Below, in pieces: positions 7,063-63,785 of a DNA stretch of 64,000 nucleotides. Source of the DNA: Tribonema minus (taxonomy: Eukaryota > Sar > Xanthophyceae > Tribonematales > Tribonemataceae); assembly GCA_017506865.1 (NCBI GenBank), contig JAFCMP010000051.1, positions 248,001-312,000 on the forward strand. The letters are read 5' to 3'. Below the pieces are notes generated by a model. That model had not been told where the DNA came from. It made no database searches and saw only the letters and a program-made list of their open reading frames with translations. A program made the translations under genes and the position numbers. Within the stretch, counting starts at the first letter, position 1, and every line of letters begins with the position of its first letter.

Positions 7063-10000
7063 CTACTCGGAGCTCAGACTGCCCACTCTGAAGCTCGCCC
7101 CCGCTGCGCTGCCGCCCCCGAGGCTGCTGCTGCTGCCGCCGAGCGCTGCTGCAGATGGCGCGCCCCCCCCCTGCCCCCCCCCCCCCGCTGGCCCATTGGA
7201 CGCCTCGATATCCGCCACCTCCTCGTGGCTCAGGAAGAAGCGGTGGTTCTTGAGATCAAAGAGGTCGTCAGGGGGTGGAGAGTCGTGGCCTATGAATGCG
7301 TGCAGGCAGTGCATGGAGTTGACCAGCCAGAAGCTGCCGGGACGGCCGCCGGTGCCGCTGTCGTCCCAGATCTTCTTGGGGGGCACCTGCGATTTCAAGA
7401 ATGATGAATTTAAGAGATGAATAGCTGTAAATTTCTGTGTGTGGTATGTAAGCAGGTTAAATACCTGTGATGAGGTTTGCTTCACGCTGCACGTTAAAGC
7501 ACTGTAAGCATACAGTGCAGCAGATATGGTATTCGTTCAGCTGCACAAACCGTGTCAGAACACACACAACCACACACAACCAGCTGTGCTAAGCAGAGGC
7601 CCAAGCTGCATACCATGTGTGTAGTGCAAATACTGGGTGCGACATAAGCTGATGTCTATTAGCGCTGTAGTTCAACACATGCCAACAGCCTGAGTGCCGT
7701 CCAGTGCGCGTTAACAACTATGTGTTAATAACTATGTGTTACTACTATGTTTCAACATCAACAATGTGTTCATGACTATGTTTCAACATCAACAATGTGT
7801 TGGTAACTATGTTTCAACATCAACAATGACATATACATACCGACATACTCTTGATATTTTGATACCATCCATGGCATAGCCTCACATCAGCTGGCTTGGC
7901 CCAGCGGCGCGGTATGTTTAAGGATTAGGGTTAGGGTTAGGGTCAGCATACTGGGATTGTCAAGATTGTACATTGATATTTGTCTATGAGCGCTGTATTT
8001 GTGTGAACACGCCAAGTGCGCGCTGCGTGTGATACGTTTCAGCATGAACAAGGGCATTCACACCTCCAAATTCATTGAAACATGAAACCATGCCATAACC
8101 TCACCTCGGCTGGCTTGGCCCAGCGGCGCGGTATGCACCTCACGCTGTCCAGCGAAGGCTGCTCCTCACTGGTAGTCGCAATCATGCCCAGCACTACAAA
8201 GGCAGAGCTGGGGGGCACCGGCCGCCACACGTATAGGGGCTTGTCCCCCCCCTCCTGCTTCCACACCTCACGGAAACGGACGGGGTGTGGGAACAGGGTG
8301 TCCACGATGACGTCCAGCTTCTTGCCCTTGGTGAGGCCGCTCTTGCCCGTGTCGGTCACCTCCACCACCAGGGGCTCTATGTCGGCATCCTGCACAGTGC
8401 TCAACGGTCAAGTGTTAGGATTAGCGTTCCAGGTATGGTGATGGCAACATGAAGGTTGGAGGATGAAGGTTAGGATTGGGCCATGACATGCAAGCTGATT
8501 GAGAACCTCAACAACAAGGACAGCTAGAAGTATGTGTATGATGGCAGCCCTTGAGTGAGCAATTCAGACAAGGTGGGTAAAGCAGTTGTTTCTGGGGGAT
8601 GAGCGGGGGAGTGGTCAGGCCGAGGCGAGGGCTAAGATAAGGTTTTGTGCTGGCCGTAGTAGCCCTGAGAAAACCATGGCGTTGGCGGAGAGCAGTGGAA
8701 AGTCAGCAGTGTGACCATAAATTTGTCAACGAGCTCTCATTGTGAGTGAGTGTTCTTGCTAGTGCCCAGTACACTCCTCTCGTGGATAAGTGCAGAGCCC
8801 TTGGTGAACATCTCGGCTGTTGCGGATAGACATTGATGCAGCCCATTCCCTTTTTTCTGCATGATGCAATAACAGGAGTCAGCTTGCTAAATGTTCGGAA
8901 CTGTTTCATGGCCCTCTAGCGCATAAAACTCAACATGATCATCCTCATCTGCACACGCAAAAAAAAAAAACTTGATGCGCAACAGCACACAACTTAACAC
9001 ACAACTTAGAGTTTAGGGTGAGGTTAGCTCGAGTTAGGGTTGTCGAAATGAGACACTAGGTACAGTAGAAAACGCGCAATAACTTCACAGTGCTGAGGCC
9101 ATGTTGCGCAGCAAGCAAAGCGGCACACACCACACGCGTTCTGCAAGGCAATAGACACATCCATACCTTGCGGCCAAATCCTGAGAGGCCCGGCCTTGCA
9201 AAGTGCCCCAGCACGACCCTGATCCTGTTGCGCGTCATGAGCTTCTTTGCTCCCACGTCTGGAGCCCAGATGCTGGCCTTGGCACGCGCTCCAGTGCCGT
9301 GCGTCGTCCAAACCCTAACACAAGGGTTAGAGGAGGTGAATGTCAGGGGTAACATCAGAGTGAGGGTACGTAGAGCAAGTGATTTGTGTGGTCCACCACA
9401 ATCTGACCGTGCCGTGTGTCGTCCAAACCCTTACACAAGGGTTAGGGTCAGGATTATGACTATTATGTAGATCAGAGTAAGAGTGCTATAAAGTTAGTGC
9501 CGTGCGTCGTCCAAACCATCACACAAGGGTGAATTTAGGGTTGGGGTTAGGGTTAGGGTTCGGGTCAAGGTTGGGGTTACGGTTAGGTGAATGCTTAGGG
9601 TCAGGATTACAGTGAGGGTTAGGGTACTGTAGAGGTAGGCAATGTGTGGTCCACATTCTGACAACAGTGCCGTGCGTCGTTCAAACCCTGACACAAGGGT
9701 TAGAGGTGAATGTAACATGAGGGGCAAGATTAGAGTAAGGGTCCCATAGAGTTGCTAATACCTGGTGCCCGTGTGTAGGCCACATTCTGACACCAGTGCA
9801 GTGCGTCATCCAAACCCTTACACAAGGGTGAGAGGTGAATGTTAGGAGTAACATCAGAGTAAGGGTACTGTAGAGTAGGTGCCATGTGGTCACTACACTC
9901 TGACACAAACAAGAAGGGACTATTGCAACTGTTGATAGTCGCTTGTCTTCAATAAGATCCACGGTCTTGTGGTGCACATACGGAATGCAGTGTTTGCTTC

Positions 10001-63524: not shown

Positions 63525-63785
63525 TGCTGGGGGTCTGCGTCCCAGTACTGCACAAGAGTTAGGGCAAGGATTAGGGTTAGGTTCAGGGTTACCCTGTTCT
63601 GACTGCTGCAGGAGTCTGCGTTTCAGTACTGCACAAGGGTTAAAGATAGGATTAGGGTAAGTGAGGTTTAGGGTCTGCGTTCCAGTACTGCACGAGGGTT
63701 AAAGATAGGGTTAGCGTTAGGTTTAGGGTTACTACCCTCACCCTACTGCTGCGGGGGTCTGCGTCCCAGTACTGCACAAGAACAT
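63525..63785 (-). repeat. Exon-1 5'-edge echoes (4 copies)
   Basis: Four decayed copies of the exon-1 start with its CAG acceptor (core GTCTGCGTCCCAGTACTGCA on the plus strand) lie near 63530, 63610, 63675 and 63755. They are separated by TTAGGG-like runs and all end inside the exon sequence after about 20-25 bases. Confidence 0.85.

What the first reader, a model, noticed from the sequence alone, without database searches (positions are those of the whole stretch)
7870..63785. Exon-edge echoes: truncated tandem copies of exon borders fill the introns of one gene
At most of the 48 exons the flanking introns carry partial copies of that exon's own border. Upstream introns hold the acceptor plus the first 20-110 bp of the exon. 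Downstream introns hold the last 20-100 bp plus the donor. I counted more than 100 copies. They never contain a whole exon (exon 18 is only 39 nt and shows none), they stay next to their parent, and they usually get less similar with distance (clear at exons 3, 10, 23, 36). Tandem duplication in introns is known, but duplication systematically anchored on both splice borders of nearly every exon is not something I know described. It could be how these introns grew, for example by repeated templated repair or slippage that starts at splice borders.
Basis: seen in the sequence. Interest (0 to 1): 0.88.

Follow-up and report, generated by a model that had tools for sequence, protein, structure and literature searches.

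The report
Tandem arrays anchored on exon edges
In this alga-like genome, introns carry tandem repeats of about 140 bases that begin at the edges of the neighbouring exons, far more often than random duplication plus selection would place them there; a similar structure was known from a few amphioxus genes, and here it runs through one 48-exon gene and appears elsewhere in the genome.

Summary
The minus-strand gene (DUF3638/DUF3645 protein, 48 exons, open CDS of 9416 nt) has 113 partial copies of its own exon edges at 51 of 94 splice borders and 39 of 48 exons, none a whole exon and none inverted. The nearest copy lies a median 138 bp from its border; copies hold a median 41 exonic nt.

Random tandem duplication plus purifying selection does not explain it. 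Of 46 repeat clusters in the gene, 42 touch an exon; uniform placement, corrected for detection power, predicts 19-37% (P at most 3.4e-14). A sample of 296 kb elsewhere shows the same bias more weakly: 41 of 80 clusters, 16% expected.

New here are the distant lineage, the density, the spread and the test against intron interiors. Why duplications start at exon borders stays unexplained. AGGT-type intron gain was tested and not met.

The parts
7064..63391 (-). 48-exon gene, DUF3638/DUF3645 + SH3 + EF-hand protein (coding part; the 5' end may lie further up)
63367..63867 (-). echo array, acceptor side of exon 1 of the model (3 repeat pairs; this border is not among the 94)
63107..63299 (-). echo, donor of exon 1, offset 139
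61002..62148 (-). single distant weak echo of donor of exon 2, offset 1100
60477..60921 (-). echo array, acceptor of exon 3, offsets 150/283
59316..59508 (-). echo, donor of exon 4, offset 131
56923..59026 (-). echo arrays around exon 5 (both borders) and acceptor of exon 6
56595..56637 (-). echo, donor of exon 6, offset 227 (place worked out)
54620..55459 (-). echo array, acceptor of exon 8, offsets 96/193/293/386
53834..54357 (-). echo array, acceptor of exon 9
53382..53808 (-). echo array, donor of exon 9
51673..52885 (-). echo arrays, both borders of exon 10
50835..51337 (-). echo array, acceptor of exon 11
50375..50687 (-). echo array, donor of exon 11
49484..49795 (-). echo array, acceptor of exon 12
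48398..48919 (-). echo array, acceptor of exon 13, offsets 174/362
46708..47685 (-). echo array, donor of exon 14, five scored copies
45776..46295 (-). echo array, donor of exon 15, offsets 147/294/420
44757..44961 (-). echo, donor of exon 16
43274..43487 (-). echo, donor of exon 17, offset 106
41096..41261 (-). echo, acceptor of exon 19
39200..39587 (-). echo array, donor of exon 20
37090..38830 (-). repeat cluster around exon 21 (donor echoes scored, offsets 216/434)
36826..37035 (-). echo, acceptor of exon 22, offset 145
35337..35721 (-). echo array, acceptor of exon 23
32895..33541 (-). echo array, acceptor of exon 25, offsets 136/271/387/533
31731..32605 (-). echo arrays filling most of the intron between exons 25 and 26 (donor 25, acceptor 26)
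31208..31530 (-). echo, donor of exon 26, offset 166
29635..30234 (-). echo array, donor of exon 28
28068..29252 (-). echo array, donor of exon 29, nine scored rows, several 94-100% identical
27675..27984 (-). echo array, acceptor of exon 30
27202..27550 (-). echo array, donor of exon 30
24868..25236 (-). echo, acceptor of exon 33
22421..22941 (-). echo array, acceptor of exon 35
20814..21969 (-). echo arrays, both borders of exon 36
19793..20065 (-). echo, acceptor of exon 38
19241..19538 (-). echo array, donor of exon 38, offsets 117/234
18385..18768 (-). echo array, donor of exon 39, offsets 145/299
17517..17675 (-). weak echo (score 24), donor of exon 40, offset 116
16736..16924 (-). echo, acceptor of exon 41
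16170..16489 (-). stretch holding the donor of exon 41 and its echo, offset 92
12973..13297 (-). echo array, donor of exon 43, offsets 128/228
12056..12574 (-). echoes, donor of exon 44
11126..11791 (-). echo array, acceptor of exon 45
10562..10794 (-). echo, donor of exon 45
9291..9908 (-). echo array, acceptor of exon 46
7808..8135 (-). echo, donor of exon 47, offset 219

Best explanation
These are mirage-type minisatellites. A stretch of about 80-220 bp straddling a splice border (a median 41 nt of exon, the rest intron) is duplicated head to tail; the array then grows by further exchange of whole units. The copy that joins the exon body stays the functional border; the others become intron and decay. 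Shown: position, size, orientation, array structure, local origin, and the excess at borders over intron interiors. Inferred: a mutational cause (a staggered break near the exon edge, filled in and joined, is a known route to small tandem duplications), tolerance because the splice site next to the exon body is preferred, and growth of these introns mainly from their ends. Not known: what makes exon edges the starting place.
For: 113 direct copies at 51 of 94 borders, 0 whole exons, 0 inverted. Nearest offset median 138 bp, with near-multiples such as 96/193/293/386; 94 of 103 nearest offsets in window and sample together lie between 80 and 220 bp (loci L004, L019, L022 dropped as repetitive). 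42 of 46 clusters touch an exon; interior detection power is only 1.27-fold lower; expected 19-37%, enrichment 17- to 45-fold. Intron flanks of the copies resemble the border's own flank, 67% against 51% for random pairs, 104 copies, so the unit spans the border. The bias recurs elsewhere. Tandem duplications from break fill-in: PMC8355091, passages only.
Against: No transcripts and no population or relative genomes, so neither use nor copy-number change was seen. Exon-derived halves of copies are 2-3 times less diverged than a neutral duplication model predicts. Splice dinucleotides are kept slightly above expectation in two of four similarity classes. In the sample 39 of 80 clusters touch no predicted exon; some may be missed exons, not resolved. 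Many sampled exon probes also hit distant loci (16% and 13%, against 6-7% of non-exon probes). The break-repair step has no direct evidence here.
Confidence: 0.62

Rival explanations
1. Ordinary random tandem duplication plus purifying selection and better detection: duplications arise everywhere, exon-internal and whole-exon ones are purged, and those touching conserved exons stay recognisable longer.
For: Explains why no whole exons are copied, why copies keep to the border, and why the nearest copy tends to be the most similar. In the genome sample about half of the clusters (39 of 80) touch no predicted exon.
Against: Predicts 19-37% border clusters after correction for detection power; observed 42 of 46. 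50-bp windows deeper than 500 bp in introns have a local echo in 18%, border windows in 46-56% (not corrected for detection).
Confidence: 0.1
2. Exon DNA as such (coding, GC-rich, nucleosome-bound or specially transcribed) is the hot spot, not the splice border; only duplications reaching into an intron survive.
For: Borders with echoes have longer exons (225 against 161 nt, p=0.0017) and slightly higher edge GC (0.644 against 0.623, p=0.023).
Against: Exon depth stops near 80 nt: 1 of 32 nearest copies exceeds 90 nt in exons of at least 180 nt, 30% expected. Some sampled loci with long predicted open frames show none (L006, L009, L013: 0 of 21 borders), though these may not be real spliced genes.
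Confidence: 0.25
3. The copies are kept because they do something, for example as decoy or regulatory splice sites.
For: Exon-derived halves are less diverged than neutral expectation, with change concentrated at third codon positions (6.7/5.7/15.6%); GT/AG kept above expectation in two of four similarity classes.
Against: Over all copies GT/AG loss is close to expectation (75 of 94 intact); use of the decoy site would shift the frame or add a stop in 91 of 94 copies; third-position excess is partly expected from the exon's own synonymous change.
Confidence: 0.06
4. The introns were created by tandem duplication of coding sequence containing AGGT (Rogers-type intron gain), or by mobile introner elements.
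For: Both would leave repeats of exon sequence or repeated introns.
Against: Intron starts do not resemble the next exon's start, nor intron ends the previous exon's end (47 own pairs against non-own pairs, p=0.73 and 0.12). Copies are private to each border.
Confidence: 0.02
5. Assembly artefact.
For: Tandem repeats are prone to misassembly.
Against: Most copies are well below 95% identical and carry their own substitutions and indels, at many borders and several contigs.
Confidence: 0.01

Closest known systems
Amphioxus 'mirages' (globin genes BflGb6 and BflGb9; Adh3, retinol dehydrogenase and presenilin loci as cited; PMC3087553, passages read)
   [quoted passage not shown] partial exons; units 150-160 bp in the globin genes; many but not all copies keep AG/GT.
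   Different: Reported there for a handful of genes in one animal lineage; here at 51 of 94 borders of one gene and in a sampled genome of an ochrophyte-like eukaryote, with a test against intron interiors. Length difference between haplotypes and RT-PCR of transcripts were reported there, not obtained here.
Intron gain by tandem genomic duplication (Rogers 1989, as cited in PMC3087553; later support recalled)
   Same: Tandem duplication in a gene interacting with splicing.
   Different: Duplicates coding sequence to create a new intron; its signature is absent here.
Small tandem duplications from filled-in staggered breaks (PMC8355091, passages; similar work in plants recalled)
   Same: Direct head-to-tail duplication by a local mechanism.
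   Different: Induced sites in mouse and human cells, short duplications (the paper speaks of insertions under 100 bp); no preference for exon borders in the passages seen.
Whole-exon tandem duplication in animals (recalled)
   Same: Local duplication of exon sequence.
   Different: Copies there are complete exons usable in splicing; here 0 of 113 are whole.

Membership tests
Amphioxus-type mirage minisatellite | tandem copies spanning an exon-intron boundary | tested here: met
Amphioxus-type mirage minisatellite | both 5' and 3' boundaries affected | tested here: met
   51 acceptor and 62 donor copies
Amphioxus-type mirage minisatellite | unit length near the globin cases (150-160 bp; Adh3 units are 10-72 bp) | tested here: met
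   nearest offset median 138 bp in the gene, 149 bp in the sample, wider spread than in the globin genes
Amphioxus-type mirage minisatellite | many but not all copies keep the splice signal | tested here: met
   75 of 94
Amphioxus-type mirage minisatellite | copies homogenised within clusters | tested here: inconclusive
   exon-derived halves less diverged than flanks; cause not separated
Amphioxus-type mirage minisatellite | length difference between haplotypes | not testable with these tools
   three exons searched are single-copy in the assembly
Amphioxus-type mirage minisatellite | normal splicing not disturbed | not testable with these tools
   no transcripts
Tandem-duplication intron gain (AGGT) | intron start resembles next exon start, intron end resembles previous exon end | tested here: not met
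Introner or transposon copies | same element at many loci | tested here: not met
   border probes in the gene and three exons in the assembly
Whole-exon duplication | copy contains a complete exon | tested here: not met
   0 of 113 in the gene; 5 of 139 sample rows flagged whole, 4 of them in one low-identity locus, L019

The most novel reading that the evidence does not exclude
Exon-intron borders are mutational hot spots for tandem duplication of one narrow size class (about 80-220 bp), so introns in this lineage grow mainly from their two ends; amphioxus mirages would then be an independent instance of the same process, and this process would be a general, so far unrecognised, route of intron expansion.
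Probability: 0.4. Interest if true: 0.85.

Novelty: new variant of a known kind. Interest (0 to 1): 0.62.

Why it matters
How introns get long is mostly put down to transposons and unbiased small insertions (general knowledge). Here spans of border-anchored repeats cover 20.6 of 46.9 kb of intron in one gene, with a narrow unit size and a start point set by gene structure. That makes intron growth, and the source of the hot spot, directly testable. It also means that 75 copies with an intact splice dinucleotide, typically one or a few units away from the real sites, are carried in a gene whose 48 exons still read open.

Tried and rejected
Random duplication plus selection (simulated placement and detection power): rejected. 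AGGT-type intron gain: rejected. Dispersed element or introner: rejected. Inverted copies, as template switching to the other strand might leave: none. A short motif at the duplication junctions (TTGAAGTT and relatives): over-represented in introns, but no link to the junctions was established. Interstitial telomere repeats as the shared cause: they lie almost evenly along introns (median 243 bp from a border, 273 expected) and correlate only weakly with echo density across 24 sampled sequences (rho 0.40, p=0.055). Strong selection for or against the decoy splice sites: not seen, (observed/expected intact 0.25/0.36, 0.80/0.56, 0.82/0.70, 0.88/0.92 in rising similarity classes). Coding constraint on the copies: undecided; the copy-branch count (50, 46, 88 changes by codon position) is blurred by exon changes between copying events. 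Haplotype copies for length polymorphism: none found for three exons.

Literature searches on the question: (one search was on break repair). Among what they listed, only PMC3087553 was seen to describe border-spanning arrays; the other listed papers were seen as search listings only. The 2002 Adh paper is not held and is known here only through PMC3087553.
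Full report
WHAT THE GENE IS. The window is G000:C51:248001-312000 of a 158-Mb, 554-contig assembly. The gene runs on the minus strand. A splice and codon HMM trained on the window proposed 87 exons over the whole window. Guided by tblastn of four homologs (P0001, P0002, P0070, P0110) I kept 47 by hand and dropped calls in the neighbouring gene, doubtful ones, and short ones that looked like copies of a neighbouring exon edge; one exon was added and one boundary changed. 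The result is 48 exons, 47 introns (median 934 bp, range 341-1832), exon median 176 nt, and a CDS of 9416 nt without a stop. 42 of 48 exons have a homolog match at E<1; exons 1, 2, 3, 18, 19 and 37 do not. The 5' end is uncertain because exon 1 of the model has its own acceptor. Pfam finds DUF3645, a sub-threshold DUF3638, SH3 and EF-hand domains in 5 of 10 stretches tested. The homolog search returned 303 proteins, the best 120 listed; the listed ones carry DUF3645 and nearly all DUF3638. The two best hits (58% identity over 99%) are unnamed; the named hit with the highest identity is from Chrysoparadoxa australica, 64% over half of the searched part, an ochrophyte. That suggests, but does not prove, an ochrophyte source.

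THE OBSERVATION. Each border (60 intron nt plus up to 110 exon nt) was searched in all 47 introns. At score 26 or more, 108 copies lie in the border's own intron at 48 of 94 borders, 3 in the exon's other intron (92 pairs), 1 in 4232 non-adjacent pairs. A wider scan (score at least 24) finds 113 copies at 51 borders and 39 exons; two of its rows, at the acceptor of exon 31, fall in GCA simple sequence and are probably spurious. None holds a whole exon and exon 18 has none; none is inverted (score 22 or more). Exons without echo: 7, 18, 24, 27, 32, 34, 37, 42, 48. Three exons searched in the whole assembly match only their own locus, two of them also their echoes (best candidates only).

ANATOMY. 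Nearest copy to its border: median 138 bp, 5-95% range 94-223, 51 borders. Borders with several copies often show near-multiples: 96/193/293/386, 136/271/387/533, 157/322/480. So many are arrays of a unit near 140 bp whose first member is the exon edge. The exon part is 17-75 nt (5-95%), median 41, maximum 122. In exons of at least 180 nt, 1 of 32 nearest copies reaches deeper than 90 nt where 30% would under free placement (KS p=0.0006). The intron flank of the copies resembles the border's flank, 67% against 51% for random pairs over about 50 nt in 104 copies, so the unit spans the border. Nine examples are printed. Nearest copies beat farthest ones in similarity to the exon at 22 of 30 borders.

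IS IT MORE THAN RANDOM DUPLICATION FILTERED BY SELECTION? This was the main rival: a duplication inside an exon or of a whole exon would be purged, one straddling a border is harmless, and an exon keeps its copy recognisable. I clustered all local direct repeats (131 pairs within 1.5 kb; from 77 pairs farther than 3 kb apart and the area ratio, about 4 near pairs would be background). Of 47 clusters, 42 overlap an exon by at least 8 nt, 4 lie in intron interiors, 1 lies outside the gene. Simulated duplications show that border pairs stay detectable only 1.27 times longer than interior pairs. Uniform placement of units of the observed lengths, with the selection filter, predicts 21% border clusters; 25% after power correction, 19% if exon depth is capped at 90 nt, 37% if interior space is cut to intron not already in border clusters. 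Observed 42 of 46; P from 2.5e-26 to 3.4e-14, enrichment 17- to 45-fold. The rival fails in this gene.

ELSEWHERE IN THE GENOME. Thirty stretches (296 kb, six of them on the window's contig) were annotated with the same model, without hand cleaning, so exon calls there are less certain and may include copies. Echoes at score 26 within 1.5 kb: acceptors 25% and donors 22% (128 each), non-exon probes 13% near predicted exons (756) and 9% farther away (1348). Hits in distant loci, a control, were also commoner for exon probes (16% and 13%) than for non-exon probes (7% and 6%); counting only probes without a distant hit, the figures are 18, 20, 12 and 8%. A border scan finds 139 events at 61 of 250 borders, nearest offset median 149 bp; this table includes low-identity repetitive loci such as L004, L019, L022 and part of contig 6, and 5 rows flagged as whole exon, 4 in L019 and 1 in a 66-nt predicted exon in L002. 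Of 83 clusters, 41 touch a predicted exon, 39 do not, 3 are exon-internal; 16% expected, P=5e-13. The bias is thus weaker than in the window gene; missed exons may be part of the reason, which was not resolved. With L004, L019 and L022 dropped, the 103 nearest offsets of window and sample fall between 80 and 220 bp in 94 cases. One sampled gene, about 140 kb away on the same contig, is EttA-like (E 2e-126; below the family cut-off, since only 311 residues of one exon were used) and carries donor copies that can be read by eye.

FATE OF THE COPIES. Splice dinucleotides are intact in 30 of 42 acceptor and 45 of 52 donor copies. By rising similarity of the exon part, observed against expected is 0.25/0.36, 0.80/0.56, 0.82/0.70 and 0.88/0.92: no sign of purging, perhaps slight retention. 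Using a decoy would shift the frame or add a stop in 91 of 94. One result does not fit simple decay: in gapless copies (64; those with more than 35% mismatch left out of the count) the exon-derived part differs from the exon by 6.7, 5.7 and 15.6% at codon positions 1, 2 and 3, while the intron flank differs by 25%. A neutral simulation gives a flank to second-position ratio of 1.4-1.7 (about 2 by theory for gapless copies); observed 4.4, and more in the best-aligned subsets. Copies compared with each other show the same contrast: the exon-derived part is the more identical one in 90 of 98 pairs, 57 of 62 without exon 29. Homogenisation with the exon, slower mutation of GC-rich copies, or constraint could each do this; assigning changes to branches did not separate them.

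HOW IT MOST LIKELY WORKS. Shown: a border-spanning segment of narrow size is duplicated head to tail, mostly at borders, often repeatedly, at donors and acceptors alike. Inferred: the copy joined to the exon body remains functional and the rest becomes intron; this is tolerable if splice-site pairing across the short exon prefers the body-proximal site. Inferred: initiation by a staggered break filled in and joined, a route shown for small tandem duplications in mouse and human cells (PMC8355091, passages), followed by unequal exchange within the array. Unknown: why exon edges. A splice-border hot spot and an exon-DNA hot spot cut back by selection were not separated. Borders with echoes have longer exons (225 against 161 nt, p=0.0017), which fits either.

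WHAT IS KNOWN. [quoted passage not shown] it cites the name 'mirages' from the Adh3 locus, says that the generating mechanism is unclear, and that RT-PCR suggests regular splicing is undisturbed. This is the same kind of structure. My searches for it in other organisms showed nothing else, within an open-licence library and mostly from listings. I therefore file it as a new variant of a known kind: distant lineage, dense, spread over the genome, and with the border excess measured.

LIMITS. One genome, no transcripts, no relatives, no reads. Exon calls outside the window are model predictions. Cluster counts depend on a BLAST threshold. In the window, hand removal of short exon calls that looked like copies used knowledge of the echoes, though homologs support 42 of 48 kept exons. 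Breakpoint sequences were read by eye in nine examples only.

Noticed in passing
introns across 7064-63391; e.g. 40348-40401, 43575-43649, 62901-62933: Telomere-type repeats (CCCTAA/TTAGGG) form 88 short tracts in 35 of 47 introns, in both orientations, almost evenly spread, with only 4 bp in exons. Contigs 2 and 3 carry the same repeat at their starts, and the genome holds 4247 exact 42-base matches, overlapping ones and contig ends included. They look like scars of break healing (inference).
   Followed up: partly
introns of the gene: TTGAAGTT is over-represented (37 against 1.2 expected, in 14 of 47 introns), partly through the exon 29 array. No link to duplication junctions was established.
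   Followed up: partly
28068-29252, donor of exon 29: The youngest-looking array: echoes of the exon end plus donor spaced about 98 and 101-104 bp in turn, several 94-100% identical; a good place to look for length polymorphism.
   Followed up: partly
exon-derived halves of the copies: They are 2-3 times less diverged than a neutral duplication model predicts, with change concentrated at third codon positions.
   Followed up: partly
5257-5944 minus strand: A long open frame of a neighbouring gene, with what looks by eye like a signal peptide; no family search was made.
   Followed up: no
L003:6661-7595: Exon of an EttA-like ABC-F gene, with echo arrays at its borders.
   Followed up: partly
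G000:C334:714136-714324 and G000:C112:516888-517037: Two fragments matching the RuBisCO large subunit family, each with an internal TGA.
   Followed up: no
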